This document shows, in pieces, positions 1,288 to 55,117 of a stretch of DNA of 64,000 bases. A program made the position numbers and the translations under genes. The notes under the pieces were generated by a model. It saw nothing but the letters and a program-made list of their open reading frames with translations. It was not told the DNA's origin and did no database searches. The DNA is from Fistulifera solaris (lineage: Eukaryota > Bacillariophyta > Bacillariophyceae > Naviculales > Stauroneidaceae). Every line of letters begins with the position of its first letter. The stretch's first letter is position 1. The stretch lies in the NCBI GenBank assembly GCA_030295235.1, contig AP026131.1, positions 248,001-312,000 on the forward strand, written 5' to 3'.

Positions 1288-1346
1288 CATGATTGAAATC
1301 CAGTCATGGAGAAAGGTCGCTTACATTTTGGAAGTATAGTGAACAT
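1288..1346 (+). promoter_or_regulatory. dispersed hairpin element, copy 1
   Basis: The stem GATTGAAATCCAGTC (1292-1306) is followed by the tail TTACATTTTGG and then ATAGTGAAC. It is the first of eight related elements in this window and lies upstream of the gene at 1760. Confidence 0.5.
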
Positions 1347-1511
1347 AGCAGTCAACGATCCAGATGGATTTTCAACGTGAAAGATCTTAGGGTGGACCGT
1401 ATTTGCAAAGCGACCTTACATATTCCTTTGACCAAGAAACTTGCCAACTTTTTTTTTAATTTAAGGAATAAGTGCCACACTCGCGAAAGAGAGAGAATTA
1501 TGGCTCTTGTC

Positions 1512-1574
1512 TCGTGACTGAAATCTAGTCGTGGGGTAGTCTCCATAAGTCAACATTCCGGGCCATAGTGAATT
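1512..1574 (+). promoter_or_regulatory. dispersed hairpin element, copy 2
   Basis: CGTGACTGAAATCTAGTCGTGG is split here as stem GACTGAAATCTAGTC plus GTGG, followed downstream by ATTCCGGGCCATAGTGAA. It has the same order of parts as the other copies and sits about 190 bp before the ATG at 1760. Confidence 0.55.
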
Positions 1575-1759
1575 TGAGCAAAGAAATGCAATGCGCGCAT
1601 TGATGCGACGAGGCAAACTGCAAAATGCATTTCAACTCCAATGCGAGTCGTTCTGGTAAAGCGATCTTCTGTATTCGAATCGAAATCACGTAAAAGCTTC
1701 GTTCGCGCTCAACTAAAGCTCTACTTGGCGACAACTCTCCAAAGGAAGCTTGAAGCAAA

Positions 1760-2868
1760 ATGGATCGAACGGCGTTTTTGGCAAGTATGCCATTCTTGCT
1801 GCCAACATGCCTTGACGATTTCCCTCGAAACGTTGATTACTCAGTTGAAATTCTTCTCAAAGAAACAATTTTTCTTTCGATCGAACCCTCATCGTGTAAG
1901 GGTCCGGCTTATTTTGCTGTGGAAGAGAGGTCTGATCCAAGTGTATGCCCTGTTGAATTGGCCTTTTTCTATCGACGCGCTTTGAACGACGACGATGCAA
2001 TCATTGAATCTGCACCCTTTCTAATGGATGATAGGACATCTTTGAATAAGCCGGAATATTCGGCTTTGGGAGTAATGATGCGTATCGAGGGGCATCTTTT
2101 GTCGTCGATGTTCGTCTCTTGCGCAGTTTAAAAATGAGCCTGCAATCCGCCGAGGAAGGTACAGAACGGCCCGCCTCCTTACTTTTCAATTTCACGTCGT
2201 CTATCTTTCGGATTTTCTCAAAATATCCGGATGATCGCTCCAAACTTCAAGAAGCCAAAAGCAAGCTTACCAGTCTCATTCAAAAGAATTCTGACGAAGT
2301 CTGGGAGCAAGGACTCCTCTGTCTTGACAAGTCCACCATCGACTCACCTTCCACTACGTCGACTCGACATAAAGAGAGCCAGAACAGCAGTGTCACCGTA
2401 GACGACTCGGCAAAGACAACCATTCGTGGAAATCCAACCGCCACTGCGCCCCCTGTTGTTGAACGCTTGCAGAAACGACGTCATTATCAAGACGAGTTCA
2501 ATGAGAGCATGACAAAGCTCGATATGATTACGAAACAAATTCCTCATTTGACGGATGCCGATATGCCTCATTATCGCCAAGCGGCGTGTAGCATGATGAC
2601 AGCTGCAGCCGAAGCGCAAGGAAAAGCGTTCGCTTCACCGTTGGATGTAAGCTCGGCGACCCAACACTTTGAAAGCGTGGCGCAGGATGCGTGCGAAAAC
2701 ATCAAACTGATGTTAGAAGCTTTCTTTCCATCCAAAACCCCCAGCGTTCGCCATGACAACGTCTTGGATCTGGAAGCGATGGAGGAACAAGTATCCGAAC
2801 AATTGCAAAAACGACAGAAGGCTGTGACGGAGCGGGCGAATCTAGTGCTCTTCCCGACCCGTGGGTAA
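1760..2868 (+). CDS. hypothetical protein with one apparent frame break
   Basis: Two overlapping frames make one coherent protein of about 369 residues. The first runs from ATG 1760 (MDRTAFLASMPFLLPTCLDD) to about 2065; the second continues with FGSNDAYRGASFVVDVRLLR into the frame that stops at 2868. The switch falls at the TTT run 2065-2067, where one more T would keep the frame. The C-terminal half is predicted helical (VVERLQKRRHYQDEFNESM, later MEEQVSEQLQKRQKAV) with a Ser/Thr-rich linker around 2340-2450. I do not recognise the family. Alternatively the second frame could start alone at ATG 2134, but the coding-like sequence upstream of it argues for one gene. No convincing intron fits. 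Confidence 0.55.
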
Positions 2869-2982
2869 GGGAAGTCGTAAACCGAAACTAATAACTTGGT
2901 AGTTGTAGACGTTTCTCGAACAATATAATTGTATAAAAAAAAGTAAATGAGAATGTAACAGAATGATTTCGGTTGATCGACG

Positions 2983-4065
2983 CTACTCAACGTTTTGAAT
3001 TTGTTTCAAAATGCTGTCCGCTTCCGCGATCGTAATTCGTTTCAGGTCAAACTTCACCTCGGCCCAGTTTTCGAGCGATTTGCTCGGGGAGCCCTTCGCC
3101 ACCCAGATACGCCACGCTTTGGTTCGGTCCGATGACCAACGCACACCTTGTCCTACGATCTCATCATTCACGAATTGAAAGACTTCGACGGATTGATCTT
3201 CTTTCTCGATTTTGCCCACACCAAATCGCTTATTGCGAACAAACGTTCCTTCGAAACGAAGACCCGACGCGTAATAGTAGCGTCCCGTACCGTGCATGAA
3301 GTTGGTTTCCCAATCTCCCCAATAAGCGTCACCGTTCGAATAATAGAAACGCCCTTGCCCGTGGCGTTTGCCCATTTCGTAAGCTCCATCATAGACATCT
3401 CCGTTCGGATAGCGACGATATCCATGACCGTGCATCTTATCCTCGTGCCATTCCCCGAGATATTCGCCTTTATCGGGCGCAGTTGGGTTGATGCTGACTC
3501 CAAAGACCAAGAGTCCTCGTCCTTCTCGCAAGTCGTTATCAAAATGACCGCGAAAGACGTCTCCATTACTCCAAACGAGTTCTCCTTCGCCGTGTTTCTC
3601 ACCATAATCATTGTATGGGCCGTTGTACTTTGCCGTTCCCGGTACTAGCTGCTGCGCAATGGCAGTAATGGAACGAATATCATCGTCAGTGAATCGACAG
3701 CGACGTGATTGCGGCTCTTCGAGTGTCTTGGGAATAGCACAACAGACCATGCACTTTCCTTCATCGACGAGGAGCGGGACCGTCAAAGGAATACGCTCGG
3801 GTGCTTTATCATTTCCACACAACAAAGCCCATCGTGTCTTTAGTTGAAAGAGCTGCTGCCCGCACGAGGGGCAATGTCCCGTCTCTTTGCGTTCATTCGC
3901 GAGCGCCGCTGGACTTGGTTGCAAAGGCCACGGTAACTGTTGTATCACAATCTCTTCGGGTTCGTCTTCGAATTCTTCGTCTAAATTGTAGCGACTCGGA
4001 TCATGATCGCTGAATCCTCGCAAAGGAATGATTTCTGTAGGCACTTGTTTCATGACTGACAACAA
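2983..4065 (-). CDS. MORN-repeat protein with Cys pairs near the N-terminus
   Basis: 360 residues. An acidic N-terminus is followed by two Cys groups, CPSC around residue 66 and CMVCC around residue 105, which could bind a metal ion. From about residue 148 to 275 there are roughly six MORN units of the YxGxWxxGxxHGxGxxxxxxGD type, for example YLGEWHEDKMHGHGYRRYPNGD and YDGAYEMGKRHGQGRFYYSNGD read as separate repeats. MORN repeats bind membranes or act as scaffolds; in some proteins they are linked to lipid kinases or junctional complexes, but no kinase domain follows here. A second ATG at 4053 is an alternative start. It is convergent with the gene ending at 2868. Confidence 0.9.
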   Translation of the reverse strand: MLSVMKQVPTEIIPLRGFSDHDPSRYNLDEEFEDEPEEIVIQQLPWPLQPSPAALANERKETGHCPSCGQQLFQLKTRWALLCGNDKAPERIPLTVPLLVDEGKCMVCCAIPKTLEEPQSRRCRFTDDDIRSITAIAQQLVPGTAKYNGPYNDYGEKHGEGELVWSNGDVFRGHFDNDLREGRGLLVFGVSINPTAPDKGEYLGEWHEDKMHGHGYRRYPNGDVYDGAYEMGKRHGQGRFYYSNGDAYWGDWETNFMHGTGRYYYASGLRFEGTFVRNKRFGVGKIEKEDQSVEVFQFVNDEIVGQGVRWSSDRTKAWRIWVAKGSPSKSLENWAEVKFDLKRITIAEADSILKQIQNVE

Positions 4066-4833
4066 CTTGTGGAAGGAAGGTTGCTGTCAACGAGAGCGAT
4101 CGATGAACTGTTTTGTCGAGCTGCGATTTGTGACAAAAGAATGATAATTCACATCGCGCTAAGACTCAGTGTCGCTGGGCAAGATGTCAAAGCGTGATGG
4201 AGAACATCATGTGTGTTTCAGTGGGAGGGACGCACTTTCTATTCCCGTCAAAGAATGTCCAAAAGATAGTGACGCAACAGAAGGTGCGGCTGTTATTTTT
4301 GCGTTTCGTGTTCTGCGGGTGTTTTTGGTGGGAGAATATTTGGAAGTAGGGTTATTATCCGGTACACGGTGGGCACATGTTAGGAAGAAACTCGTTTTAC
4401 GAAAATAGCGTTCTACTTATTATGGCTTTTACTGCGACAAATATTTGTTTTCGGACTACAGGTCAACATCATCTTTCATCGTTACACGCTCCCACGACAT
4501 CGCCGTTATGAGGATTACAAAAAAAACGAGGACGAGTGAGTCCGTTTCTGTTATTCGACAAGTCGTATTTCAAACATAACATTTTCCCACATGATCCCTG
4601 GAACCACATTAAGCAACACATGAAATGAACTAAGCTGTTACACAAAACGAAGATACGATTGGCTTTTGATCGACTCGCCGCTGTAGAAAGGCCGTTTTCA
4701 CGCAGAAAGATTGACGTATATTGTTAATAATCTACGAATCGATCGTACTTTTGCGAAAAAGGATTAGTTGATCCGATACCTCTAATAGGTTTTATCTCTG
4801 AGGCCATTGACGGATTCAAATTGAATTTTCATC
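4066..4833. other. intergenic region without a recognised gene
   Basis: Between the divergent MORN and APP1-like genes. A 79-codon frame at 4169-4408 starts at GTG, has no recognisable features and is probably chance. No repeat element was identified here. Confidence 0.6.
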
Positions 4834-7800
4834 ATGGATCGTTTTGCTGCTATGATTATCCTCTTGGGGACTTTGGTGGTGAGTATTTCTCTTCATCACG
4901 GATCACTTTGGCGTTTCGCAGAAATCTCACACGATAGAAAACAAACAGAGCTTGGTGCTTATCCTACTTTCCTTCTTTTCGGTGGCCCCGATTTTTTGCT
5001 CTTGCCTGCTGAGTCTCTTGTATAGTCTTTATTTATTCATGGCGTACGAAGAATCGGGGATTCATCACGCACAAGAATTCGAGAACCGCTTTTGGACGAT
5101 TTTTGCGTTGCTGTTAAGCACGGCTTTGTTTTTTGCTAAGGATTCACCGGTGGCCTTTGGTTTGACATGGTCACCTACGGTTGGTTTTATGGCGGTCATA
5201 CTCTCGGGTTATGCAATGCACGTGTGGGACCGATATACACATCGCGTTGCAATTAGCAGTCAGTCGGCTTCAATGTTGATACGGCGGTCCTCTCAGAACA
5301 GCAAACACGGTTTGCTGTCGCAGTCTCTGTTGCACCTGCGTGATTTGGGAATACCGGTGGAAGCACAGCTGGCCAAAATTAATGACTGCTTACAGGAAAT
5401 CGATCAGCTCTTGATTCCGTCGACAATTAACAATTTTATCAACATTCGCTACGTTCAGGCCAAAGAGCGTGAAATTATTGCCGTTTTTGAAGAATGTGAC
5501 GCCCGCGCTTTGAACTATCTGATAAGTCACGTGAAACTCGGGCTACTGTTTTACAAAATTAAAGATCACCGAAACTTTCACGGAAAGCACCGCACAGAAC
5601 TCATTAATTTGCTGGCCGTGGAACGCTTATCGATTCTGACCGTCATGAGTCGCGTCATCTTACTACATTCTTTGCAACTATTGAAATTGCGCGCCAATCC
5701 GAAGGCGGAGTACTGGGTTCGGCATATATTGCTAAATACACATCAAGACGATTTGTCCGAACTCAAGACGTTGACGGACGCGAAAGGTGATTACTTTTGC
5801 ATGAACAAATTAATATATGACGACATTCGATCTGAATCAGTTCGACAAGATATTCTTCATCATATTCGACGGGAGGCGGCTGTTCAACAGACAAAGTGGC
5901 AAATGGGCATGGCCCGGAGAAAGTCTCCACTGTCTAGTCGACCTGTCATGACTTGGCGGAAAGTCTTGTCCGATGTAGATGATACTCTGTCGTGCAGCGG
6001 CGGAATGTACCCAGCTGGCGTTGATAAGCGATATCCAAAGAAGACTATCTATCCGGGAGTGTTAGCATTTTATCGAGAACTCGATTTGGGCACGCAAGGC
6101 TCTGAACAATGGGAGGACGAGCGAGTAGGGAATCTTGTTTTCTTGTCGGCACGACCGCATGTTTACAAGGATATGTCAGAAAAGATTAATTTTGCGAAGT
6201 TTGAAAAGCTTCAAATGGTTGGAGAGGATGGGCGGAAAGGAATGCATACGACACCGAGTTTGCTGGCGGGGGACTTGGTTTCGGGGAGTCAATTTTTCGT
6301 GACAAATGATTACGAGCATCTAGCTCGGAAGAAATTTGACAACTTTCGGCGCTACGTTGGATTGTATCCTGAATTTCAACATGTCTTCGTTTGTGACAAC
6401 GGTCAAGGCGATGTGCGCGCTGGTGAAATGATGTTTGATAGCTTTCCATACGAATTCGAGGCATTGTACGTTCACGTGGTTCAGCCCGTGAACAAAACTC
6501 ATGGGTATAACTTGGAGCGTTGGCGAGACAAAGAGTTTTCACCGTTCTTTTTCCGCTCGTACCCCGAAGCGGCGCTACATGCAGCTAGTAGACATCCTCC
6601 ATTGATTCGCGTGAAAGGGCTGCAACGAATTTGCCAAGATGCTGTGAAAGATTTTGCTCAGATTAAGAATTGGCCCTCGGAGCAAGTGAAAGCGGCACGT
6701 CGACAGGAGCTGAACCAAGCCATTTGGCTTGCAAATCGTTTTCTTGTTCAAAATAATGAGGCGATGGTTGAGAATATTTTAGGGGAACAGATCTGGCGCA
6801 GCGGAGAAAAAGTGCGAACACCATATGGTGTGGCAAGGATTGTCAGCTACGATCCGGTACACGACATGTACGAGGTGAATCTTGACTGGAGACCTCTTGA
6901 CGTGCAATTGAAAGAGCACGAAGAAGACCTTAAAAGCAAGACAAACCGATCGGCACCCCCTTCCGCTCCGAGGCAGAAATCACTTGAGACTGTGCACGAG
7001 CAAGACGAGAGCGATGAAGAAGTGGCGGCGATATCCAGTGGCGTGGCAAGTGTCGTGACAACACAGGATGGCGGCGAGTCAGCTTTACCACAAGCCCCTA
7101 CTCGTCCATCGTCTACGATCGATCCGTTATCGGTATCCGAAGAGTTCCTGTGTGTTGAATCGAATGATTCGAGCTCTAATTCGAGAACGTCGACATCGCC
7201 GAATAACGAGCCTGATATTCCATCGTTAGAGGTCACCCCGCCCCGCCGATACAAGCCAAGACTGGCTTCTGGAGACCCTTCAGTGAAGGCGTATGTATCC
7301 GGTATGCTCATCACAAAGTACACAATGCCGCCTTTACCTAAACTGGAAAGGAAGTCTTCCGTTTTTACATTTTTCACGATTCCAGACACCCCCGTATCCC
7401 GAGATCCACCAAAGCGTCGAATCCTAGAAAAGGGCACAGAATGCAGCACACCTTACGGCCCCGTTGTAGTCGTTCAACATCGTATCGACGATCATGTGGT
7501 GATTGCTGACATGATAGGATGGAAAGCTCGGGCATACATTCACGAATCTCTTGTATCACCACTTCCGCGGAATCTACTGAGAGCTCTTCTTCGGCAATTC
7601 AGCTCTGATACTGCACCACACAAGCCATTAGAATTCCCACACTCAACAGGGCTGCAAATCAAAACGCCTTTCGGTCGCGGGTCAATAAAACGACCTATTC
7701 CAATCACAGCCCAGAATCGCCGGGATTCGCTTTCTACGCATCACATGTTGCCCACAATGGGAATTAGTCTCGACAACTGGACTTTAGCAAATGGATCTCA

Positions 7801-8625
7801 TCCCATGTTGTACTGCACGGAGGCGACTGCTCGTGCATGGAAAGACCGCAAGGAAGAAGATAACCCGTCGCTTTTCTTCACGCTTGGGTCAGCGTTGGTA
7901 ACCTCGTCTCGCTCCTTGTTTGAACCCTTTTACAACAGCCAAAGCGCGTGGTCAAAGAAGAGTTGCCAAAAACTTTCAATCGATTTTATCAAGACGGCGC
8001 GGCAGTTACTACGCCGTTCGGATATGGCCGCGTGGTCAACTTCCGTCCAGGTGACGGAATGTACGAAGTACTACTCGTGCAATGGACATTGGCGAGCGGC
8101 TCCCATCCGCGTGTTTACGCTAGGGAGGTTGATTTGAGCTCACGGGTAGCAAGTGGCTGCCAGGAGGGTTATCCAGTTTTGACAAGTTTGGGGCTATCCG
8201 GAATTCTTGCTTCTGTTGAACCTACGACAGGGGTTCATATTGTGACCATATCGTCAGTTCGAATGGTTTGCTACCTTCAACCGGATTGTGTCGTACGGCC
8301 TTTAAAGGCTGCGGTAGGTGAAGATGTATTGACTATCTTTGGCGATGGTTCAGTAGAAAACTACCATGCCGCTCGCGATATCTATACCATTCGTCTGTCG
8401 TGGGGAGCAAAGTTGTATGCTAAAGCAGACACCTTTGATCGAGTAGGAGAAGGAGTACAGGACCGAGATGAGCCTTTTGGCGTCAACTGGCTTTTAAGAC
8501 TCCTTTTCTTCTCACCTGCTTCTACTAGAAAAGGGGACTCAAACCCTCAATCACGCAGTCGAAGCAATAGCGTCGTCAGCGGTCTTAGTCAAAAAAAGCA
8601 AGCAGTGAATAGGGAACTTTTATAG
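4834..8625 (+). CDS. APP1-like HAD phosphatase with C-terminal repeat modules
   Basis: Spliced model: 4834-4878, 4949-7897, 7939-8625 (1226 residues); both introns (70 and 41 nt) join in phase 0. Exon 1 plus the start of exon 2 forms two hydrophobic spans, so the protein is membrane-anchored. The centre carries the DUF2183/APP1 phosphatidate phosphatase catalytic region: D357-V-D359-D-T (the HAD DxDxT motif), then FLSARPHVY and FVTNDYEHLARKKFDNF. APP1 enzymes convert phosphatidate to diacylglycerol. The C-terminal 600 residues hold about six short modules of the type G-x-x-V-x-TPFGxGxV, often followed by an MYEV strand and WTLANGSHP. A linker rich in Ser, Asp and Glu separates the two parts. 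The second intron is short; if it is not spliced the protein would end at 8137, losing the last modules, which is unlikely. Confidence 0.85.
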
Positions 8626-8705
8626 AATGAATTGTACAATAATGATAACGTAGTTCTTTATTTAATTCTCTATTTGTAGTCAAACACGCTGAATAAATAT
8701 TGAAG

Positions 8706-9831
8706 TCAAGATACTTTTTCTGTTTTTGCCGAATTCGTAAGAGCCCCCGGTATCCATATTCGCCACAACCATTGGGGGCCTAAAACTTGAGCAATGTTGT
8801 TATACCAGGAGCCTTCATTGAACGGATTGGGTCGATCGAACGTCTTATGATGTTCGAGTTGATAGTCCATCACGATTCTGTGTTCTAACGTCGTGTAAGA
8901 CATGCTCATGAGTTTAAAGTGATAACCCAAGAATGCGGACATGACAGCACCAACACCCATGAGAATTGGATACGCTATATCGATCACAATTTGGGAGACT
9001 ACTACATCCGCAGTTCGTTCCGTCCGAATTCTTCGGAAAAGAAGCAAAAACATATCCCATAGCGGCGGTAGATTGAGCACACCAGTACCATTGTCGTAAA
9101 GCCAGCGGAAACCATGTTCTTTCACTCGTTCTCGGAGAGGCTCGTAGAAAGGCCAGAATAGCAACGCCGTCCCATACCAACAAGCTACCGTCAAATGGAT
9201 CATAAAGAGCACGAAGGAACGGTAATTGTTAAGACCCACGCAATTATTGATCCATATACAGTGATGATCATAGCGCAGTACGCAAATGTTACAGATACGG
9301 CAGTGATGCGCTCGCGGAGGTCGGTATATTTGACAAGTCTGACAATAAGAGTACTGTGGGGACGGGTGATATTGTGTCGTGTCATCATCTTTGGGGTTGA
9401 TCGACGATGTATCTGGAATTTCGCGACACATCTGTGATACTTTCCCTGGGCGGGACTTGACCGAAAGAACATAATAGATCAAGGTTGTTGCAAAGAGATA
9501 AAGCACAATGCTGTCATGAACCCAAGTCCACGCACACGGTTCCTCGGCAGCACACCATCGTTCCGTGACGACTGCCGAACGCAGCGATATTACGTAAGCC
9601 AGAAAAATGAGACTTTGAATTTCAATCGCAAAGCTCACAAGAAAAATGTTCCACGGAAGTCGATTGATGCGGGTGACGCTGAGCGCGTCATTTAAAGCAG
9701 CTCGCGTCAGTTGAAAGATCCATGTCCACGGATTGAAGGGAAGAGTGCGGAGAATACAACGCAGCCCGAAACTCCTTCCACTTTTCCGGAAATCTCATTC
9801 TTTCTCTGGGCGCCGTTTCCGACCTAGACAT
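8706..9831 (-). CDS. DHHC-type palmitoyltransferase
   Basis: The cysteine-rich domain is clear: [16 protein letters not shown], then [14 protein letters not shown] and NNCVG, with the catalytic DHHC Cys. Four or more membrane spans flank it. These enzymes S-acylate proteins on Golgi, ER or plasma membrane. The start is not settled. The long frame is open upstream to about 9786 with plausible protein ([19 protein letters not shown]) but no ATG; the nearest good ATG is at 9831 in another frame ([18 protein letters not shown]). The GGG run at 9738-9740 is where a one-base difference could join them. The sequence ends [13 protein letters not shown] without an obvious retention signal. Confidence 0.85.
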
Positions 9832-10040
9832 CGCAGTGACTTTACTGCTCATTATTGATAAAAAGAGGCTATTTTTACTGATACTTCGGAGTTATTCATA
9901 TTATCTTGTCTTTATAATGCACCCACTATTATTTCGGCGCTCGTCATCGACCTTTTCGTCCTCGTCGTCATTTTTTTTGTGTCGAGCGTCTCGCTCTCGC
10001 GTACAGGCTGTACAGTAAGGGTTAAGGATAGGGTCATAGT

Positions 10041-10094
10041 TCGTGACCGAAATACATTCGTGGATAGTTGACGTGACACTCCGGGTCATAGTGA
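10041..10094 (+). promoter_or_regulatory. dispersed hairpin element, copy 3
   Basis: CGTGACCGAAATACATTCGTGG followed by CACTCCGGGTCATAGTGAT (read as two parts). It lies in the divergent promoter region between the DHHC gene and AP-2 mu. The stem is less perfect than in other copies. Confidence 0.5.
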
Positions 10095-10263
10095 TCCCTA
10101 GAGGAAAGAAGGTCCGCTAGGATTTTCGACACAATTAAATTGCAGCTTGTGTAGTAAATGAAGCTGCTGGTGATTACATCGTTTGATAGACAAATGTTGG
10201 GAGCCAAGCTATCAGAATGAACTATAATTTGAGCAGCAATCTTTCTCAATGGGATCTTGATTC

Positions 10264-10318
10264 AGGACTGAAATGCAGTCGTGGAAAAAAGTAATTTACA
10301 CTTTGGCTTTATAGTTTA
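10264..10318 (+). promoter_or_regulatory. dispersed hairpin element, copy 4
   Basis: Perfect stem GACTG-AAATG-CAGTC, then GTGG, then TTTACACTTTGGC and TATAGTTTA. The second copy in the DHHC/AP-2 mu divergent region, about 220 bp before the AP-2 mu ATG. Confidence 0.6.
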
Positions 10319-10536
10319 TGAGACCGGCGGGCGCGGCGTGACGCGTGACAGTACCGGTAGTCCGTTTTGCTTTGCTCCGCGAAGTATTGTGCGTGGTTGA
10401 CCATGGCGGCCTGCGGAAACGCGCATAACAGCAGATCCAGCGCAGTCGAATTGAAATATTTGCTCCTTTCGTATTACGGTGTCCTACGTATAAATTAGCC
10501 GGATTTTCCAATTTAAAGCAGGGGAAATTTGTGAGA

Positions 10537-11963
10537 ATGATCTCAATGCTCATGATTCTAAATCATAAGGGAGACATTATGATCTCCCGTCAATATCGGT
10601 AAGGCTCTGCTATCTTTATTGTATTTTCATACTCTTGAACGCCGCAATCTCAAACTAGCGTCGTCGATTTGTAGAGATGACGTCGGGAGAGCAGCAGCGG
10701 ATTCATTCCGTCTTCAGGTACGTTCAACGCAAACACACTCTCTCTTTTTCCTTTTGAAATCCTCACGAGCGATTTCGTCTCCTGCAAAAGGTCGTCGCCG
10801 CGAAAGAAACAGGCACCGATGCTCCCATCAAACGCATTGAAAACTGCTCTTTTCTTTATACACGGCACTTGAACATGTATTTTGTCGCCATGACAAGATC
10901 GAATGTCAATCCAGCACTCGTCTTTGAATATCTCTTTCAATTGGTCAAGATATTGAAAGCTTATTTGGGTGAAGAGTTTGATGAGAATGCGATGCGAAAC
11001 AACATGACGCTCATTTATGAACTCATGGACGAGACCATGGATTTCGGGTACCCCCAAAACTGTGCCGTGGATGTGCTGCGATTGTATATCAACTTGGGGA
11101 ATGTCAAACCACAAGACGAGCCAGAGCCCAGTCAGTTGACGAGTCAAATTACTGGCGCGATTGACTGGCGACGCGAAGGCATTCGTCACAAAAAGAACGA
11201 GGTGTACATTGATGTTCTCGAATCTGTGAATCTTCTCTTGTCGTCTACCGGAAGTGTGTTGCGCAATGAAGTGCAGGGTGCGGTGCAAATGAATACCAAG
11301 TTGACAGGTATGCCAGAATGCAAGTTTGGGCTCAATGATAAGCTTGTCATTGACAAAGACAAGGGTGATGGGAAACAGACGGTGGAAATTGATGACTGTA
11401 CGTTCCACCGGTGCGTGCGATTGGGAAAATTCGACGCTGACCGAACCATCACTTTCATTCCGCCGGACGGAGAGTTCGAGTTGATGCATTATCGAGTAAC
11501 GGACAATATCAATCTACCCTTCCGTGTCATCCCCGCAGTTCAAGAAGAGAACAATATGACAAAAGTATCGATCAATGTCAAAGTGATTGCCAGTTTCTCG
11601 GATCAGCTCTTTGCGACGCACGTTGTGATCAAAATACCGGTACCGAAGAATACGTCTAAGGCGAAAATCAAAAACTCTTTTGGTCGTGCCAAGTATGAGC
11701 CCGAACAGAACGCCATCGTTTGGCGTGTCAAGCGCTTTGCGGGAAAGGCGGAATGCATCATCACGGCAGATGTTGACCTCATGCCCATGACGCGTCCCAA
11801 GCCATGGAGTCGGCCTCCCATCCAATTGGAGTTTCAAGTTCCCATGTTTACTGCCAGTGGAGTGCACGTAAGGTTTCTTCGTGTTTACGACAAATCAGGT
11901 TACCACACCAATCGATGGGTCCGCTACATTACCAAGGCGGGCAACTATCAAATTCGAATTTAG
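10537..11963 (+). CDS. AP2M: AP-2 complex subunit mu
   Basis: Spliced model: 10537-10598, 10675-10717, 10791-11963, giving 425 residues (family about 435). Introns of 76 and 73 nt fit in phase 2 and phase 0. Exon 1 starts MISMLMILNHKGDIMISRQY, exactly the start of mu adaptins, and joins to RDDVGRAAADSFRLQ and then VVAAKETGTDAPIKRIE. The N-terminal longin-like domain continues with NPALVFEYLFQLVKILKAY and MDFGYPQN. The C-terminal mu homology domain, which binds Yxx-phi sorting signals, has WRREGIRHKKNEVYIDV, FIPPDGEFELMHYR, PPIQLEFQVPMF and the end WVRYITKAGNYQIRI. AP-2 rather than AP-1 is inferred from overall likeness to plant AP-2 mu. It acts in clathrin-mediated endocytosis. Confidence 0.93.
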
Positions 11964-12028
11964 TTTGTGTTGATCGTAAAATAAATTTACTTATTATAAT
12001 TTGTTTTTAATACCATTTCATTTTTCGC

Positions 12029-13622: not shown

Positions 13623-14406
13623 ACTGTTATTTCTTGTTGCTGCTTATCTTACGGGCGGGGTATATTATGGTGTGCGAGCCTGAATTATTTTAACGGAGTG
13701 GTCATTCAATCGCATCGCGTTTTTTTTTTTGCGGTGGTGGCTGTGCCGTGTCACGCATTGCGTGCACGCAAATAATAAAGACAATTGTCACACCGCGTAA
13801 TCGCATGTGGTTCAAAGTGTATGCGACCTTTTTCACGACTCCATTGCCCTCTTTAATCACGAATGGTTTTCGGCTCTTTGACACGAAGTTCCGCTGCAAA
13901 AATAGCAGCAACCCTGTTAAGATCAAAACATATTGTCGTAGTTAAAGACGTTCCTTAGGTGTACGTTACTCAGCGTTTCATTCCTCGATTTTTTACGTAG
14001 CAATAGGATCGAAACCGTTCGCAAGTTACTTTACTATAGCCTCAAAGTGTAAGTTTAGGAGACCAAGAGATGGAATTCTGGACCAGGTGTATTTTATTCA
14101 TACAGAAAATCTGGGTTGCTACCGCTGTGCTGCAAGCGGAACGTCAACCCAATGCTGTCGTACCGATACTATGAATATAGGTTAAAGAGTTGTTTACGCC
14201 ATCCAGACTACTTCTTGTGAGATAGTTAAAAGCACACCATCATTGGGAAAATAAATAGCACCGTTGACAAAAAGACCTCGTCGTCGTCTTCACAACCATA
14301 ATAATTACAACATCATCATTGCTAATTGCTACCATTATCGTAGTTCTTCCTCTGATTCTTCCTATTACATACAAAACGGAACAGGTTGCTCAACGCTGTA
14401 CGAAAG
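13623..14406. other. divergent intergenic region
   Basis: Between the SR-protein gene and the TauE gene. No supported gene. At 14033-14062 the reverse strand reads TTACACTTTGAGGCTATAGT, which resembles the tail half of the hairpin element seen elsewhere, without a clear stem. A long T run lies at about 13718. Confidence 0.5.
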
Positions 14407-26364: not shown

Positions 26365-26400
26365 ACAAAAAATATGAATCGAATGCTTAAATGATGTTGT

Positions 26401-30971: not shown

Positions 30972-31080
30972 TAAACTGTCTAAAAAAGATTAAATGTGTT
31001 GATGATGATAAGGAGAACGAAGTATCAGTGCCTGTGAAGACGACAACAACAAACAAAAATAAAATGCATGTTCTTGTCTT

Positions 31081-31197
31081 CGTGACTGAAATGCAGTCGT
31101 GTTGAAAACGGTAAACACTTTGAGCATACAGTGAAAAACGGAGAACACTTTGAGCATACAGTGAAAAACGGAAAACACTTTGAGCATACAGTGACAA
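31081..31197 (+). repeat. hairpin element copy 5 with three tandem 30-bp tails
   Basis: The stem GACTGAAATGCAGTC (31084-31098) is perfect. The tail unit, AACACTTTGAGCATACAGTG plus GAAAAACGG, is repeated three times (about 31112-31197) with one or two changes. In other copies the tail occurs once. Confidence 0.75.
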
Positions 31198-31323
31198 GGA
31201 TCCGCAATTGTCGAGGGCGTGCCTTGTTAATGATGCTGATGGTGATTGCATCCTTTTAAGCCCATCAAGTTAATAGAACGGTGGTTGAAGCAGCAGTCCG
31301 GCTCAAAATAATGATCATGATTC

Positions 31324-31372
31324 ATGACTGAAAGCAGTCGTGGCGAGTTAGCACCAAAGCACAATGACTTTC
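31324..31372 (+). promoter_or_regulatory. dispersed hairpin element, copy 6
   Basis: CATGACTGAAAGCAGTCGTGG, read as stem GACTG-AAAG-CAGTC plus GTGG, with a four-base loop. The tail is weakly conserved. Confidence 0.5.
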
Positions 31373-33703: not shown

Positions 33704-34917
33704 AAGTAGACGACTCTAGAGTCTAGTCTAGGTCTAGATAGTCATTCTATCATAAAAAAAAAAATTTTGGAATCATCGGTGTCTAAGCGACGTAAGGTTA
33801 ACAGAGATTCTGTATAAATTTGAGAATTTGCTTGCGGTCAAACAAAGATTCTGTGGTCGTTCCAAAAATTCTGGAATGTTGATTGGGTCATGCGAAAGTC
33901 TGTGGCCGTTCCAGAAATTCTACAAGTAGAATCTAATTCTGGACTCGTTGTTTTGGGTAATACAGAGAATCTGTGCCCGTTCCAGAAATTCTAACGAAAG
34001 TCTGTGGGCGTTCCAGATATCTGGAATCCATATTTTGGAACAAACAAAATTTTTTTGGTCGTTCCAGAAATGCAAGAATCGTTGTTTCGGGTCAAACATA
34101 GATTCTGTGGTCGTACCAGAAATTCTGGAATCGAAGCTTTGGATCAAACAGAGATTCTTTGGTCGTTCCAGAAATTCTGGAATTTATATTTTGGAACAAA
34201 CAGAGGTTCGGTGGTCGTTCCAGAAATTCTGGAATCTATATTTGGAACAAACAGAGATTTGGTGGTCGTTCCAGAAATTCTGGAATGTTGTATTGGGTCA
34301 GAGGAAAGTGTGTGGGCCTTCCAAATTCTGAAAACAATATTTTATATCAAACAGAGATTCGGTGGTCGTTCCAGGTATTCTGGACTTGTTCGATTGGGTA
34401 ATACAGAGCTTCTGTGGTCGTTCCAGAAAATCTGGAATCGGAGATTTGGATCAAACCGAGATTCGGTGATTGTTCCAAAATTCAAAAATCGTTGTTTCGG
34501 GATAAACGTAGATTCTGTGCCCGTTCCAGAAATTCTGGAAAGTGTGTTCAGTAGAAAACAGAGATTCTGTGGTCGTTCCAGATATTCTGGAATCGAAGAT
34601 TTGAATCAAACATAGACTCTGTGCCCGTTCCAGAAATTCTGGAATCGTTGTATTGAATAATACGAAAGGCTTAAGTCGTTCCAGAAATTCTGGAATCTAT
34701 TTTTGGAACAAACAGAGATTCGGTGGTCGTTTCAGAAATTCTGGACTCGTTTTTTTGGGTAATACAGAGATTCTGTGCCTGTTCCAGAATTTCTGGAATC
34801 GAAGATTTGAATCAAACAGAGATTCTGTAATAGGTTCCAGAAATTCTGGAATCTATATTTTGGAACAAACAGAGATTCGGTGGTCTTTCCAGAAATTCTG
34901 GAATCTGTTTTTAGGAA

Positions 34918-35235
34918 CACACCGACTGAGTAGCACAGTTGGTTACTCTCCGGTTGACGAACCCGGAGGGGCGAGGTTCGATACGGTGGTTGGTCGATCT
35001 TGGCGCCCAGCGCCGTAGATGAGAGTCTTGAGACGATCGGTGGTCCCCGGTCGTGTCTGAATCAGATAGGAGCCCCTCATTTCGCATGTTCCACATGTTT
35101 GACCTGGCAGCGGTTCGGTGTTCGGTGGATTTCATCCATTGTCCATTGGGTCAGTTGTGTTTCTCTAACTCGATTAGGGACTCGGTTCTCTTGTAGGGAT
35201 AGGACGTAAGCATAGTAGATTCTAGCCATTTTTTT
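34918..35235 (+). mobile_element. tRNA-derived SINE inside the minisatellite
   Basis: The head is tRNA-like: ACCGACT can pair with GGTTGGT about 70 nt later as a 7-bp acceptor stem; the A box TAGCACAGTTGG fits TRGYNNARNNGG; the B-box region is GGTTCGATAC; TCCGG...CCGGA forms an anticodon-type stem. A body of about 240 bp follows, with a T-rich end (TTTTTTTTATTTTTT). The flanks TTTTTAGGAACA and TTTTTTGGAACA fit a target-site duplication of 11-12 bp taken from the array unit. No related copy was seen elsewhere in the window. Confidence 0.75.
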
Positions 35236-35254
35236 TATTTTTTGGAACAAACAG

Positions 35255-35590
35255 AGATTCGTGTTCGTTTCAGAAATTCTGGACTCGTTTTTTTTGGGTA
35301 GTCTAATTCAGAGATTCCGTGCCCATTCCAGAAATTCTGGAATTGTTGTATTGGGTGAAACATTCTGTGGTTGTTCCAGAAATTCTGGAATCGAAGATTT
35401 GAATCAAACAGAGATTCTGTGCCAGTTTCAGAAATTCTGGAATCTATATTCTGGAGCAAACAGAGATTTGGTGGTCGTTCCAGAAATTCTGGAATCTATT
35501 TTTTGAACAAACAGAGATTCTTTGCCATTTCCAGAAATTCTGGAGTTGTTGTATTGGGTGAAACAGAGATTCTGTGGTCGTTCCAGACAA
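35255..35590. repeat. higher-order block of the minisatellite, copy A
   Basis: This block of about 330 bp (several units plus distinctive spacers such as TTGGGTAGTCTAATTCAGAG) reappears nearly unchanged at 36390-36725. Confidence 0.85.
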
Positions 35591-36389
35591 TCTGGAATGA
35601 TGTATTGGGTCATAAGAAAGTCCGTGGGCGTTCCAAAATATTGAAAACCATATTATTCATCAAGCACAGATTCTGTGGTCGTTCCAGAAATTCTGGACTC
35701 GTTCGGTTGGGTAACACAGAGGTTCGGTGGTCGTTCCAGAAATTCTGGAATTTATATTTTGGACCAAACAGAGATCCTGTGGTTGTTCCAGAAATTCTGG
35801 AATCGAAGATTTGAATCAAACAGAGATTCTGTGTCCGTTCCGGAAATTCTGGAATCTTTTTTGGAACAAACAGAGATTTGGTGGTCGTTCCAGAAATTCT
35901 GGAAATAGTAATTGGGATCACACATAGATTTTCTGTGGTCGTTCCAGAATTTTGTGTATAATGTGTTTTGAAAGAAACAGAGATCCTGTGCCGGATCCAG
36001 AAATTCTGGAATGATGTATTGGGTCATAAGAAAGTCCGTGGGCATTCAAAAATATTGAAAACCATATTATTCATCAAGCACAGATTCTGTGGTCGTTCCA
36101 GAAATTCTGGAATCTATATTTTGGACCAAACAGAGATTCTGTGGTCGTTCCAGAAATTCTGGAATTTATATTTTTAAACCCACAGAGGTTCGGAGGTCGT
36201 TCAAGAAAATTTGGAATCTTTTTTTTGGAACAACAGAGGTTCGGTGGCCGCTCCAGAAATTCTGGAATCGAAGATTTGAATCAAACAGAAATTCTGTACC
36301 AGTTCCAGAAATTCTGGAATCTATATTTTGGAACAAACAGAGATTCGGTGGTCTTTCCAGAAATTCTGGAATCTATTTTTGCAACAAAC

Positions 36390-36725
36390 AGAGATTCGTG
36401 TTCGTTTCAGAAATTCTGGACTCGTTTTTTTTTGGGTAGTCAAATTCAGAGATTCCGTGCCCATTCCAGAAATTCTGGAATTGTTGTATTGGGTGAAACA
36501 TTCTGTGGTCGTTCCAGAAATTCTGGAATCGAAGATTTGAATCAAACAGAGATTCTGTGCCAGTTTCAGAAATTCTGGAATCTATATTCTGGAGCAAACA
36601 GAGATTTGGTGGTCGTTCCAGAAATTCTGGAATCTATTTTTTTGAACAAACAGAGATTCTTTGCCATTTCCAGAAATTCTGGAGTTGTTGTATTGGGTGA
36701 AACAGAGATTCTGTGGTCGTTCCAG
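36390..36725. repeat. higher-order block of the minisatellite, copy B
   Basis: Nearly identical to 35255-35590, including the rare GGAGCAAACAGAGATTTGG and TTTGCCATTTCCAG variants in the same order. Confidence 0.85.
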
Positions 36726-37320
36726 AAATTCTGGAATCGAAGCTTTAGATCAAAGAGAAGTTCGGTGGGCGTTCCTGAAATTCTGGATTCGGTAATTTGG
36801 ATCAAACAGAGTTTGTTTGCCCTTTCCAGAAATTTTGAAATTGTTGTATTGGGTGAAATATAGATTTTGTGGTCGTCCCAGAAATTCTGGAATCTTTTTT
36901 GGAACAGACAGAGGTTCGGAGGACGTTCCAGAAATTCTGGAAATTGTGGTTTGTTAGAAACAGAGATTCTGTGCCTGTTCCAGAAATTCTGGACTCGGTA
37001 ATTTGGATCAAACAGAGATTCTTTGCCATTTCCGGAAATTTTGGAATTGTTGTATTGTGTGGAACAGAGATTCTGTGGTCGTTCCAGAAATTCTAGAGCC
37101 TATATTTTGGAACAATCAGAGATTCGTTGGTCGTTCCAGAAATTCTGGATTCGTTTTTTTTGGGTAATACAGTGTTTTGGGTAATACAGAGATTCTGTGC
37201 CAGTCCCAGAAATTCTGGAATAGTTGTACTGGGTCAAACAGCAATTCTGTGGCTGTTCCAGAAATTCTGGAATGTTGTATTGGGTCATACGAAAATCTGT
37301 GGGCGTTCCAATTTCCAGAG

Positions 37321-37757: not shown

Positions 37758-38530
37758 GTGTAACCAGCAACAAATATATTTTTTCACGGGACACAATTTT
37801 GGTGGATCAAGTCACCCTTTGACAACGGATATTTATTCGCCAAAATTGGCGAGAGGAATGAGACTAAAAGAGTAGGAAGTAGGAAGAAACGGTCAAGAAG
37901 CCGGCCGTCCATTTGACTCCAACGGAATAAATAAGTTTACTTCATTAGTGATACTAAATGCTTTCTTTCGACAAAAATACACGATTTTTCATACATCTTT
38001 GTACATCATTGATATTTTGAAATTTTCACAGCTATAAGCAAAAGTAGTAGTATCAATGACCTGTGGCGAGTCATTTAGCATACATTGGACCAAAGTAAAG
38101 TCCAAAATAAGTCCATGGATTCTCAAAAATCCCACCCCCACACCCCCTTGTCACAGCGAAAGTAAAACTTTTCGGATGCCCTGGCATTTTTAGCCGAAAA
38201 GCACGGTTTGAACACACTAAGTCCCTAAAGTACGCAAATTTTAAGTATCATATTAAAGAGTAGCAAGCATCGGAACGGTATTCGAGTTTTAATCTGTGTC
38301 GCAGTGTGGTTGCAAAATGTCGCAGAGGACGCACGGACAGACTGGACCCTCTTTCAGACTCGTGACTTAGAGATGAAGTAAGCTAGACAGTGACAAATAC
38401 TGTACCAGGTACATTAAAACTTTACACGGGACACAATTTGATTTGGAAAAATGCGATCGCGACCCGCCATTGTTGCAGCTTATCGAAAAGCAGCAAGCGT
38501 TTGCTCTTTGATCAAGTAATTCATTCTCAT
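37758..38530. other. non-coding region before the transporter gene
   Basis: No gene found. CACGGGACACAATTT occurs twice (about 37784 and 38427), and a C-rich stretch (CCCACCCCCACACCCCC) lies near 38130. It could be the remains of a mobile element, but no family marker is visible. Confidence 0.4.
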
Positions 38531-41786: not shown

Positions 41787-41850
41787 CGGGACTGCAATCG
41801 AATTAAGTCGTCGGAGAAAAAGTAATCTACACTTTGCCTCACACTAACAA
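41787..41850 (+). promoter_or_regulatory. dispersed hairpin element, copy 7
   Basis: GGACTGCAATCGAATTAAGTCG with an altered stem, then AATCTACACTTTGCC. It lies in the divergent region between CAP and the M17 peptidase, about 130 bp before the peptidase ATG. Confidence 0.45.
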
Positions 41851-47601: not shown

Positions 47602-47734
47602 CCGGCACTTCTTGTTCTTATTAAGCTCTTAAATTGAAAATGTTGCCGTTTTGCTAGTTGTGCTGCATAGCAGGTCAATAAAGTACGACGGTGTTTGGGA
47701 TCAAAGCGAAATGCTGTGCGAGTTACAAAAATTC

Positions 47735-48255
47735 TGGAAAACTTACTCCGTCCTATTTCTGATCATACAGAAATTCTGTGGTGGTCCAGAAATTCTGGAC
47801 CAGTTCTCTCGATTCTACCGAACTGCTGTGGACGTTCCGGAAATTCTGGACAGGTTGTTTTATAGCCTAATGAAAGAGTGGGCGCGTTCCAAAATTGTGG
47901 AAACTTTGTTTTGAATCTTAACGAGAGATACTGCGCGTTCCAGATATTCTGGAAATGTTATTCCGCACTATTTCTGATCATACAGAAATTCTGTGGTGGT
48001 CCAGAAATTCTGGACTAGTTCTTTCGATTCTTCCGACATGCTGTGGACGTTCCGGAAATTCTGGATTCCAGAAATTCCGGAAATTTGATTCTTGACTATT
48101 TCTGATCATACAGAAATTCTGTGATGGTCCAGAAATTCTGGACCAGTTCTTTCGATCCTGCCGAACTGCTGTAAAAGTACCAGAAATTCTGGATACGGTG
48201 TTTTGGATCAAAGCGATAGAAAGTGCGTCTCTCAGAAATTCTGGAAACATTGTTG
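47735..48255. repeat. cluster of AGAAATTCT palindromes in ~100-bp higher-order units
   Basis: Three copies (about 47750, 47968, 48097) of a block reading CTATTTCTGATCATACAGAA, then TGTGGTGGTCCAGAAATTCTGGA, split here as ACAGAAATTCTGT plus CCAGAAATTCTGG, then TTCTTTCGAT and GCTGTGGACGTTCCGG. Alternating ACAG...CTGT and CCAG...CTGG palindromes. It lies between the TPR and beta-galactosidase genes. Confidence 0.85.
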
Positions 48256-48443
48256 TGAATCATACATAACTCGTGACTAAAACATTGATCTTTGCAAGAC
48301 CTACGTAGCCCCTGCTAGTATCTTTTGTACGCAAGGACCGTGAAAGCAAAAAAAAAGATACGTTCACGGTCTATTGAACACAATGCGCGCAATGAGATTG
48401 GAAGAAAGGTTCATCACTATCCATACTTATTAATTAATCAACC

Positions 48444-52328
<3,885 letters not shown>

Positions 52329-52352
52329 ATCTAACAGGAGGCGTCTTGTCGC

Positions 52353-54823
52353 TCAGCTAAAGTGATGGTCATCGGGACTACTTGCGTTTGTTGAGTGGGT
52401 TCCAGCACCAGCGTCTGCAGCTGCGGGTCGAATGTACGAATTTTGTAAAACTAATCTGGGTTCAGCAACGGCTTGCTCTCCTAAAGCTGCTAGGGTTTCA
52501 AGTTGCCGTGCTACCACATCACGGTGTAAATTCTGCTCGAAATGATTAGAGATGGAATCCACTTGACCAATCTCTGGACTTGTGCATCGCCAACTTGGAT
52601 GAGTTGCCTGGAAAGATGTGAGTCCGAGTGATTTCTACAAGTCCGCTCGCCAATATCCACTTACTCGAAAAGATTCAAGACTCTGCTTCATCTTCCCCAG
52701 TTTCGCTTTCGGTTTGGGATACGCTTGAACAGCTTCGTGAACGCTTTTGTGTAGTAGAACGCTTTCTGCTAATGCACCTGTCATCGGTTCGTCTGCTCGA
52801 ACGCCGAAAGCTTCATCTCCAAACAAATAAAAATCGAAGGTGGCGTAACCACACACATCGCCAGCTCCTGGTACTTCCTTTTAATTGCCAAAATAAATTC
52901 GCATATCGGTTCTGCACAATCAGCCAGGGATACACATAGTATGTAGGGCGCCAGAATCAAGGCCAAAACTTCCCGAGCGAAGTTCTTAGCTTTAAACTGA
53001 AACATAGCAGAAAAAGCTTGAAAAACTGAGGGGTCCCACCCTCGCCCTTTCCATATTTCAGGATAGTAGTGAGTATGCTTTGCTACCTCCTCCAACGACA
53101 AGTTCATTTCGTCGTACAGATTTCTCGCACTGCTCGGCTGCTGCAAGGCAGTGGGAATAAGTCCCTGCCAATCGAGTAAAGGGCCCCCACCATTCCAGCA
53201 TACCACAAAAGATTCCAATCCGCGATTTTGATATGCAACAGAATAGCATCATTTATGGCAGCAAGTGCAAACAAAACCGCTCCAAGAGACCCACCCAAGA
53301 AAACACAAATACGACCAATTGTTGCCAGTACTTCACTCGACCCAAACAAGTCCAAGTAGTTTTCCGCTGCTTTGTAACTTGGAGCAAGGCGCCGTTCAAA
53401 ATGATGAGGAAGTTCGTTGAGCTCACGAAAAGTCCACTTAGCATGGAGAGACCAGTCTTTTGGACCAAGATACCGTTTGGAATTCTTCCAGTCATACGCA
53501 TTGGACAAGCCAAAGTACAAAGTCAAGAAGAAGAGTAAGAAAGGCATGAATACCAAATGTGCCACTCCACAAAGAATGAAGCGCCTTCGAAGAGATCCAG
53601 GATCCAAGTAAAAAGCCGGCCGTATCTTGTACTTATGATTAAACATGAAGTTGAGAACACAAAAGTACAAGCTCCACTGGAAGAAGATGTACGTAAGTTG
53701 AATATGCAAGACAGAGGAAAGCCAAGGAAAACAAACAACGTACTTCCAAACTAGGACACAACAGTTGCCCTTTTATTCCAGGTACCGTCAAGTCCAGGAG
53801 CTGACGATTAAAGAGAGCAACAAGAAAATTCTCTTTTCTCATGATTCGTTGCGCAATGACCAAGGCGTCTAACTCTTGTCCGTGAATGGCAATGCGGTAG
53901 GTCCCCGATTGTTGTAATTCCAAAATTTTTCCGACAACATCATGATCCCAGTCAACAGCACCGCCTAGTAATCGATGCGCGCTTATTCCGAGACGCTCTT
54001 CGAACACCCATTTCGCTTGCAGAGCATCTTGAAAAGTCCTCCAAAACGACGTGAAAGCAAATGCGGTGTAGATCAGAAAGATGATACTGTAAGTAACCAC
54101 CAAAAGTGTGGCTCGGGGACGCGGTCGGATGTATTCTGAAAATTGAGGTCGACAGGTGCTTTCATCTGTGCATTGACTCAAACCGTGCCAATCGACGTAA
54201 GCGAATAAAAAAATCGATAGCAACAGCGTAAATACCAGTGTCAGCAGCTCCACGACACCTTTACCAATGATGGGCACCAGACCGCGGTGATAAAAATAAG
54301 AATACAATGACTGAAAATATAGATCCAGATTCGAAACGGCACCCCATCCTTCGTTTCTTGGACGGAATCGAAGTTGCGGCAAAAATACGAAATCGGTCTT
54401 ATTGCTTTGCGCGTGTTGCTGATTTTCAGGAAATGATGTGTATTGCATCATGGTAGGATCTTCGTCGTCGTCATTTATATCAGCACTAGTATTGGGAATA
54501 CCGAAATCTTGCAAGTCGACTGAATTAGAAAGATTGATGGCACGATATTCTACTTGTCTCATCTTATGTTCGTTCCACGCATCGACAGCTGCTTGGTAAA
54601 AAACATTGAAGCCACGAGAGACCTCGGAAGTCGTTTGACGCACAAATGGGCTTTCTCGATGAGGCTGATGACGCGCCTGATGCTGTTGCATTTCACGGGT
54701 GTGTTGTGATTGCAATTCTGTCGAGGAAGAATTTATTTGAGAATAATGTGCTCAAAGAGCACGCACAAACATTCTTGCAGTCTTACCTTCCCACAACCCC
54801 TCATCTTCCTCATGCGTTGCCAT
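52353..54823 (-). CDS. ATG9: autophagy protein ATG9
   Basis: Exons (coding order) 54823-54787, 54717-53744, 53676-52665, 52607-52353; introns of 69, 67 and 57 nt fit; about 759 residues. ATG9 is the multi-span lipid scramblase that seeds autophagosomes. Visible family features: NLDLYFQSLYSYFYHRGLVP, the first spans, DALVIAQRIMRKENFLVALF, CPSLEWSLYFCVLNFMF across the second intron, SLRRRFILCGVAHLVFMPF, SSARNLYDEMNLSLEEVAKH, HYYPEIWKG, and KMKQSLESFRATHPSW across the last intron. Two one-base breaks lie inside exon 3, at CCC 53163-53165 (LYSIGRGLIPTAL if mended by reading) and TTTT 52879-52882; both restore family-like sequence. The N-terminus starts MATHEEDEGLWEEL. Confidence 0.92.
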
Positions 54824-55060
54824 GGTTAATCGTATACGGAATGAAATGTTACTAACGAGAAAGGCATGATCGAGAATAGTATTTACAGAATTCAGACGAC
54901 TCGACTCTTCGAGTTATTTCGTTTTTCAACATCACACAAAAATTTTGTTTGCTTTCGGAAAAAGCCGCCTGCGACTGCGGCCGCGACCAAAACCTCTGCG
55001 ATGAACGGAGCATGTCACACCGCGCGCGCGCCCGCCGGTCTCTCGTCTACGTAGTGGTAT

Positions 55061-55117
55061 TTACTATGACCCACAGTGTAGGCTCAATAATCCACGACTA
55101 CATTTCGGTCATGAGTC
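55061..55117 (-). promoter_or_regulatory. dispersed hairpin element, copy 8
   Basis: On the minus strand: GTCATGACCGAAATGTAGTC then GTGG, then CCTACACTGTGGGTCATAGT, with the same order of parts as the plus-strand copies. About 240 bp before the ATG9 start. Confidence 0.6.

What the first reader, a model, noticed from the sequence alone, without database searches (positions are those of the whole stretch)
1288..55117. Hairpin element repeated in at least five gene-flanking regions
Seen: eight copies (1288, 1512, 10041, 10264, 31081, 31324, 41787, 55061) of CGTGACTGAAATGCAGTCGTGG-type stems followed 10-20 nt later by TACACTTTGG and (GTC)ATAGTGAA. All lie in gene-flanking sequence, most 110-240 bp from a start codon, three sets between divergent genes; a tail-only copy is at 14033. 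Copies are diverged, yet the order of parts is kept. Inference: either a very old MITE tamed as a promoter module, or a true regulatory element with a structured part.
Basis: partly seen in the sequence, partly recalled or inferred. Interest (0 to 1): 0.75.

Follow-up and report, generated by a model that had tools for sequence, protein, structure and literature searches.

The report
Ancient dispersed hairpin tandem repeat family
A diatom genome carries many copies of an old, non-coding repeat built around a small hairpin, found singly or in short head-to-tail rows between genes; it looks like a dispersed satellite-type repeat, and there is no good evidence yet that it controls the genes beside it.

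Summary
The hairpin head and the TACACTTTGG..TATAGT tail form one ~57-nt module (R). R alternates with a ~160-nt spacer (I) in a repeat unit of roughly 200-250 bp. Copies occur as single R or as short (R-I)n-R arrays. The 17-nt head with up to 2 mismatches gives 2011 matches in the 51.7-Mb genome, against 2 for the reversed control. The host is a pennate diatom with homoeologous contig pairs, perhaps Fistulifera solaris (inference).

Repeat number differs at two of the five sites; the 'tail-only' copy at 14033 has no counterpart.

Copies avoid coding sequence (0 of 53), but within intergenic space their placement does not differ detectably from random. Compensating stem changes are almost absent. 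No target-site duplication, Rfam family or generally shared carrier flank was found. I read it as a new family of a known kind: an old dispersed satellite-like repeat shaped by recombination between copies. A regulatory role is possible but unproven; hints are steadier stem arms, one footprint between paired genes and an antisense bias.

The parts
1286..1345 (+). R module (hairpin head + tail), first R of an R-I-R
   Evidence: profile hit 1286-1406, E 3.9e-21; homoeologue 53 of 60 bases identical
1346..1511 (+). I spacer between the two R
   Evidence: first part in the profile hit to 1406; 132 of 166 identical on homoeologue
1512..1577 (+). R module, second R
   Evidence: profile hit 1512-1582, E 9e-8; present on homoeologue, weak profile hit there
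10040..10098 (+). R module, first R of R-I-R
   Evidence: profile hit 10040-10260, E 3e-24; homoeologue has R-I-R-I-R
10099..10260 (+). I spacer
   Evidence: 121 of 162 identical to the homoeologue
10261..10315 (+). R module, last R (head plus GTAATTTACACTTTGG tail)
   Evidence: profile hit to model positions 1-55, E 5.6e-12; 44 of 56 identical on homoeologue
31079..31194 (+). R module with its 30-bp tail segment triplicated
   Evidence: profile hit, TRF 31105-31194; homoeologue has a single tail
31195..31320 (+). I spacer (worn)
   Evidence: profile hit 31143-31312, E 7e-6
31321..31370 (+). R module, head kept, tail worn
   Evidence: profile hit 31321-31349, E 0.004; on homoeologue
41787..41845 (+). 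diverged solo R (GACT/AGTC arms, GTAATCTACACTTTG tail)
   Evidence: sequence; no profile hit on either contig; 49 of 59 bases identical on homoeologue
55051..55115 (-). solo R
   Evidence: profile hit, E 1.5e-10; homoeologue has two R
13973..14065 (-). R tail plus start of I, head lost
   Evidence: weak profile hit, E 5e-4; not found on homoeologue, ~393 bp against ~26 bp between aligned blocks

Best explanation
This is a non-coding, dispersed, satellite-like repeat family of a pennate diatom with paired (allodiploid-type) contigs. Its unit is R (about 57 nt: an inverted repeat GACTG-loop-CAGTC, a variable spacer, then ACACTTTGG..TATAGT) followed by I (about 160 nt). Copies lie as (R-I)n-R, with n from 0 (a solo R) to about a dozen. 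Shown: most arrays start at R; unit number changes locally, as homoeologous sites differ by one R at two of five sites; the window's copies predate the split of the two contigs; predicted coding sequence is avoided. Inferred: unequal recombination between R or whole units makes and shrinks the arrays, so many solo R are collapsed arrays, as with solo LTRs. Also inferred: an unknown mobilising step, perhaps excised repeat circles, spread the family before the split, and the steadier inverted-repeat arms mark the part bound by the spreading or recombining machinery or by a dimeric DNA-binding protein. Nearness to start codons mostly follows from the compactness of the genome.
For: Genome counts against controls. 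Tandem arrays with single-unit TRF periods of 192-244 bp in the 28 loci run. With a profile of 49 units, 41 of 48 arrays with both flanks start at model position 7 or less; 19 of 48 end at positions 44-68, i.e. near the end of R. Solo and multi-copy clusters by a head pattern: 31 of 56 have one head, 14 two, 11 three to nine (some 'single' heads are parts of arrays whose neighbours are worn). Homoeologue comparison at 6 window sites: 5 shared, 2 of these with a different number of R, one with a tail triplication found only in the window. 0 of 53 elements overlap predicted coding sequence against 71% of random placements. No general carrier flank: left-flank matches involve 8 of 48 arrays, right-flank matches 9 of 48.
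Against: The right end is fuzzy: 5 of 48 arrays end before position 44, 16 of 48 in the first part of I (76-157) and 8 of 48 at 203-219. Seven of 48 do not start at R. Nine loci carry an extra CAGACGGAAATTCTG-like hairpin 37-49 nt after the tail start, which hints at a defined 3' end of a former mobile element. Stem arms are somewhat steadier than the loop, and one paired-gene promoter keeps R amid poorly alignable sequence; both could mean host function.
Confidence: 0.68

Rival explanations
1. It is a tiny LTR-type (TRIM-like) retrotransposon: R is a very short LTR, I the internal domain; solo R are solo LTRs and (R-I)n-R arrays come from LTR recombination.
For: Same arrangement as maize Wukong TRIMs, where some elements hold three to seven LTRs and solo LTRs occur (passages). 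Arrays mostly begin with R and often end with R.
Against: The unit consensus does not start TG and shows no TGG primer-type site at the R/I border. No recurrent target-site duplication at any tested offset in 99 elements. R is only about 57 nt. No partner element was sought.
Confidence: 0.12
2. It is a non-autonomous Helitron/Helentron-type element carrying internal tandem repeats, with hairpins near its 3' end.
For: Dispersed short arrays of mostly 140-180 bp repeats carried by Helentron-type elements are known in oyster (PMC7492417 passages). A second hairpin follows the last R at similar spacing in nine loci.
Against: No common left flank and only scattered right-flank matches among 48 arrays, whereas the oyster elements have conserved left and right flanks with subterminal inverted repeats. 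No fixed bases follow the second hairpin (by eye).
Confidence: 0.1
3. R is a true regulatory module (dimeric DNA-binding site or structured part) kept in promoters, and the arrays are its local duplications.
For: Stem arms differ at 5 of 80 positions between homoeologues against 8 of 46 for loops (Fisher p 0.07; p 3e-5 to 0.04 against two assumed neutral rates). L063/L064 keep a block of about 90 columns with R (roughly 80% identical) in otherwise poorly alignable promoters. In gaps between co-directional genes R is antisense in 18 of 23 (p 0.011, post hoc). The R tail holds TATAGTA, which fits TABASTA, the commonest promoter motif reported in F. solaris (passage).
Against: Placement within intergenic space is as random. 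Compensatory stem changes almost absent. No Rfam match in arrays and no overall RNA structure in the unit. Copies at 31324 and 14033 have lost part of R. Relative to the nearest start the orientation is 30 antisense to 22 sense, no clear bias.
Confidence: 0.15

Closest known systems
Dispersed satellite-DNA-like short arrays (oyster Cg_HINE repeats, PMC7492417; passages seen)
   Same: short arrays, most often of 2-3 monomers there (140-180 bp there, roughly 200-250 bp here), scattered through assembled DNA in both orientations
   Different: oyster arrays sit inside Helentron-type carriers with conserved flanks; no such general flanks found here
TRIM retrotransposons such as maize Wukong (PMC4528315; passages seen)
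   Same: (repeat-internal)n-repeat arrays and solo repeats, explained by recombination
   Different: no TG start, target duplication or primer-type site seen here; the terminal repeat is only ~57 nt
MITEs (general knowledge)
   Same: short, non-coding, many copies near genes
   Different: bounded by direct repeats, and no target-site duplication
TABASTA promoter motif of Fistulifera solaris (PMC5935921; passages seen)
   Same: the R tail TATAGTA fits this degenerate 7-mer
   Different: TABASTA is far shorter and degenerate; the passages seen do not mention this repeat

Membership tests
TRIM / small LTR retrotransposon | direct terminal repeats around a short non-coding internal region, solo repeats and tandem arrays | tested here: met
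   the right end is sharp in only part of the arrays
TRIM / small LTR retrotransposon | 4-6 bp target-site duplication | tested here: not met
   99 elements, 3600 offset and length combinations; the 12 best show at most 2 matching elements
TRIM / small LTR retrotransposon | TG...CA ends and tRNA primer site | tested here: not met
   consensus of 49 units starts TTCATGACTG and has no TGG at the R/I border (by eye); no comparison with the host's tRNAs was made
MITE | terminal inverted repeats with target-site duplication | tested here: not met
   direct-repeat ends and no duplication; no separate search for inverted ends was run
Helentron-type HINE | conserved left and right flanks with subterminal inverted repeats around the array | tested here: not met
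   48 arrays with both flanks; matches involve 8 (left) and 9 (right) arrays, none general
Helentron-type HINE | autonomous Helitron partner sharing the ends | not tested
   no search for transposase genes was made
Known structured RNA | match to an Rfam family | tested here: not met
   window at gathering score: none; 8 loci at E up to 1: two matches, both outside the arrays and far below gathering score
Structured RNA element | compensatory base changes in the stem | tested here: inconclusive
   110 heads (52 distinct), one double change; another in L063 (by eye); the set was partly chosen for an exact head
Promoter element | non-random position relative to start codons | tested here: not met
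   48 elements with genes on both sides, p 0.22-0.28; gene calls are my own hexamer predictions
Dispersed satellite-like repeat | short tandem arrays of one unit at many places, with local copy-number change | tested here: met

The most novel reading that the evidence does not exclude
R is a dimeric-protein or hairpin-recognised regulatory site that an old tandem repeat has scattered by the hundreds or more through the promoters of an allodiploid diatom. Loss and gain of R units, seen between homoeologous promoters, then tune which subgenome's copy of a gene is expressed.
Probability: 0.12. Interest if true: 0.7.

Novelty: new member of a known kind. Interest (0 to 1): 0.36.

Why it matters
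It is an old repeat family whose array sizes differ between two homoeologous contigs, so it gives a natural experiment: each site can be compared with its homoeologous twin. If R affects transcription, it would be a ready handle on homoeologue expression bias. If not, it is a clear case of dispersed short-array repeats in a compact protist genome with no carrier found so far.

Tried and rejected
Known structured RNA, self-cleaving ribozymes included: no Rfam match in the arrays. The folded alignment of 32 units gives no consensus structure beyond a 3-bp helix on one strand, and the energies of 12 units lie near those of shuffled sequence apart from one.

Viral or bacterial origin: no exact match of two head patterns in viral contigs, nor of one of them in bacterial and archaeal genomes. 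The patterns are strict and near relatives of the host may be left out there, so this is weak evidence.

Transposon with clean insertion: the only presence/absence site, 14033, is not a clean insertion (by eye), and the target-duplication scan was empty. The TACGTCATACACGGGACAG sequence next to R in L063/L064 is not general (11 sites at up to 3 mismatches against 6 in the control).

A long-window map of the homoeologue failed; short coding queries worked. A fuzzy listing of heads was useless and is not used (second part); one search replaced it. The first placement run with 31 elements (16 divergent, 13 tandem, 1 convergent, 1 edge) was replaced by the larger one, which drops L043, L047 and L064 as homoeologous duplicates and sets 5 of 53 elements aside as lying at an edge.

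Selection on R between homoeologues: identity of R was 0.88 and 0.73 (1288), 0.83 (31081 second R), 0.83 (41787) and 0.79 (10041 second R), against 0.77, 0.83, 0.70 and 0.65 for the rest of those regions. Three further R gave 0.66 (10041 first), 0.45 (31081 first) and 0.65 (55061; rest 0.63) because the aligner met a different number of R or of tails; BLAST pairs the 55061 R at 84%. Window copies were found by their likeness to the consensus, so this does not prove constraint.

Literature: eight searches, of which I saw the listings only, showed no title or abstract start on this repeat. Only open-licence papers are held.
Full report
What is there. The eight hairpin copies exist at the stated places. 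The head (CATGACTG-AAATG-CAGTCGTGG in consensus, an 8-bp stem with one T.G pair) and the tail (ACACTTTGG..TATAGT) belong together. Of the 28 places with a mismatch-free tail I fetched 20; 18 carry a clear head just upstream, two (L063, L064) a strongly diverged one (by eye); 14 of 20 have both 5-nt arms exact, with eleven different loops. I call head plus spacer plus tail R. R is followed by a ~160-nt spacer I, and R plus I form a tandem unit with single-unit TRF periods of 192-244 bp (28 loci). A profile of 49 units was used to find and delimit copies.

Is it more than chance. In the window the bare stem at 3 mismatches is not above shuffled sequence (48 against 50.7); the full tail pattern has 1 match with none expected. 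In the 51.7-Mb genome the 17-nt head with up to 2 mismatches has 996 + 1015 matches against 1 + 1 for the reversed pattern, the tail with up to 1 mismatch 108 + 130 against 0, and the exact stem with free loop 786 sites against 0. Four of the eight window copies fall within the 2-mismatch limit, so 2011 is probably an undercount of R, although a few sites may be counted on both strands.

Architecture. In 40 loci plus the window, 56 clusters with 107 heads were seen: 31 single, 14 double, 11 with three to nine heads; 49 of 51 spacings lie between 203 and 250 bp. Some of the single heads are parts of arrays with worn neighbours. Of 48 arrays with both flanks, 41 start within the first 7 positions of R; 19 end at model positions 44-68, near the end of R, 5 earlier, 16 in the first part of I and 8 near the end of the unit. 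So (R-I)n-R is the largest class, but the right end is not sharp. Flank matches are few (8 arrays left, 9 right) and none is general; one of them, L011/L022, is a 147-bp piece of what looks like another repeat. Nine loci (L028, L031, L032, L050, L052, L054, L056, L057, L062) have a second small hairpin, CAGACGGAAATTCTG with up to 2 mismatches, 37-49 nt after the tail start; the 10 other matches of that motif, of 19, lie elsewhere, mostly in the second satellite. No target-site duplication stands out in 99 elements.

Host. The protein at 55528-56706 (sideroflexin) has 585 hits, 120 listed; the organisms named among those are diatoms. The genome holds homoeologous contig pairs: C9/C10 (five coding anchors 86-95% identical), C1/C2 and C3/C4 by locus comparison, and C15/C16 share a paired gene. 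The species is inferred, not shown.

Age and turnover. I compared six window sites with C10. Sites 1288, 10041, 31081, 41787 and 55061 all have R at the matching place, and all 8 full R copies have a counterpart; at 41787 the profile recognises neither copy and the match rests on the alignment. At 10041 the window has R-I-R and C10 has R-I-R-I-R; by eye the window's first R is most like C10's first and its last like C10's last, though the global alignment pairs the first with C10's middle R. One unit was gained or lost. At 55061 the window has one R and C10 two. At 31081 the tail is triplicated only in the window. At 14033 the tail-only copy lies in about 393 bp of which C10 has about 26, without a clean insertion signature. 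Two further homoeologous pairs, L036/L043 and L022/L047, also share R, but both members had been fetched for an exact head, so they are not independent evidence.

Is R conserved by selection. At most sites R identity is near or somewhat above that of its surroundings (values in Tried and rejected). Stem arms differ at 5 of 80 positions, loops at 8 of 46 (Fisher p 0.07). The pairs were set by eye; pairing 10041 with C10's middle R would make it 6 of 80. The paired genes at L063/L064 have alignable coding starts and poorly alignable promoters, with one stretch of about 90 columns containing R that is roughly 80% identical; the tail lies 239 and 205 bp upstream of the start codon. That is a single case, and both were fetched for an exact tail. 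Compensatory changes: among 110 heads (52 distinct) one double change, another in L063. This gives no support to a conserved RNA stem beyond the inverted repeat itself, which would equally suit a dimeric DNA-binding protein.

Placement. With my own hexamer gene predictions on 39 records (299,538 bases), 0 of 53 elements overlap coding sequence against 71% of random placements. Of the 48 with genes on both sides, 24 lie between divergent, 23 between co-directional and 1 between convergent genes (null 41.5, 52.5 and 6.0%; p 0.24 for divergent). The nearest gene end is a 5' end in 37 of 48 (null 68%, p 0.22), and the median distance to a start side is 262 against 321 bp (p 0.28). In co-directional gaps R is antisense in 18 of 23 (p 0.011), but this was one of several looks and not planned; relative to the nearest start it is 30 antisense to 22 sense. 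So the gene-flanking position is what a compact genome gives.

Mechanism. Shown: direct-repeat architecture, dispersal, age, local unit gain or loss, avoidance of predicted coding sequence. Inferred: unequal recombination among R or units builds and shrinks arrays and leaves solo R; an older mobilising step spread them. The arrangement is that of TRIM retrotransposons such as Wukong (passages), but their ends, target duplications and primer site were not found. Oyster satellite-like arrays (passages) are the nearest in distribution, but their carrier flanks are not found here. I therefore file it only under the loose kind 'dispersed satellite-like repeat' and leave its transposon class open.

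Noticed in passing
window 34001-37160, 37178-37310, 47938-48194; L015: A second dispersed satellite with short palindromes (TTCCAGAAATTCTGGAA, CATACAGAAATTCTGTG); TRF periods 52, 128 and 103 bp, and related arrays on many contigs, some with ~205-217 bp steps. In L015 an R-I array lies directly inside or beside it.
   Followed up: partly
L028, L031, L032, L050, L052, L054, L056, L057, L062: A CAGACGGAAATTCTG-like motif lies 37-49 nt after the start of the last R tail, perhaps the 3' end of a former mobile element; its palindrome resembles that of the second satellite.
   Followed up: partly
L063 and L064 (C15/C16): Paired genes whose protein starts look like signal peptides (by eye; reading frames) share a promoter block (TACGTCATACACGGGACAG plus R, antisense) while the rest of the promoters aligns poorly.
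   Followed up: partly
window 38001-38180: A ~180-bp dispersed repeat with copies up to 94% identical on several other contigs, perhaps younger than the R family.
   Followed up: no
G000 contigs C1/C2, C3/C4, C9/C10, C15/C16: The assembly contains homoeologous pairs (coding 86-95% identical at five anchors on C9/C10), fitting an allodiploid diatom.
   Followed up: yes
L022, L050, L052, L061: Another recurrent intergenic element with parts like CTTCGGCGTCTAGCCCC and CGTTCTCGCCC lies near several R copies (by eye).
   Followed up: no
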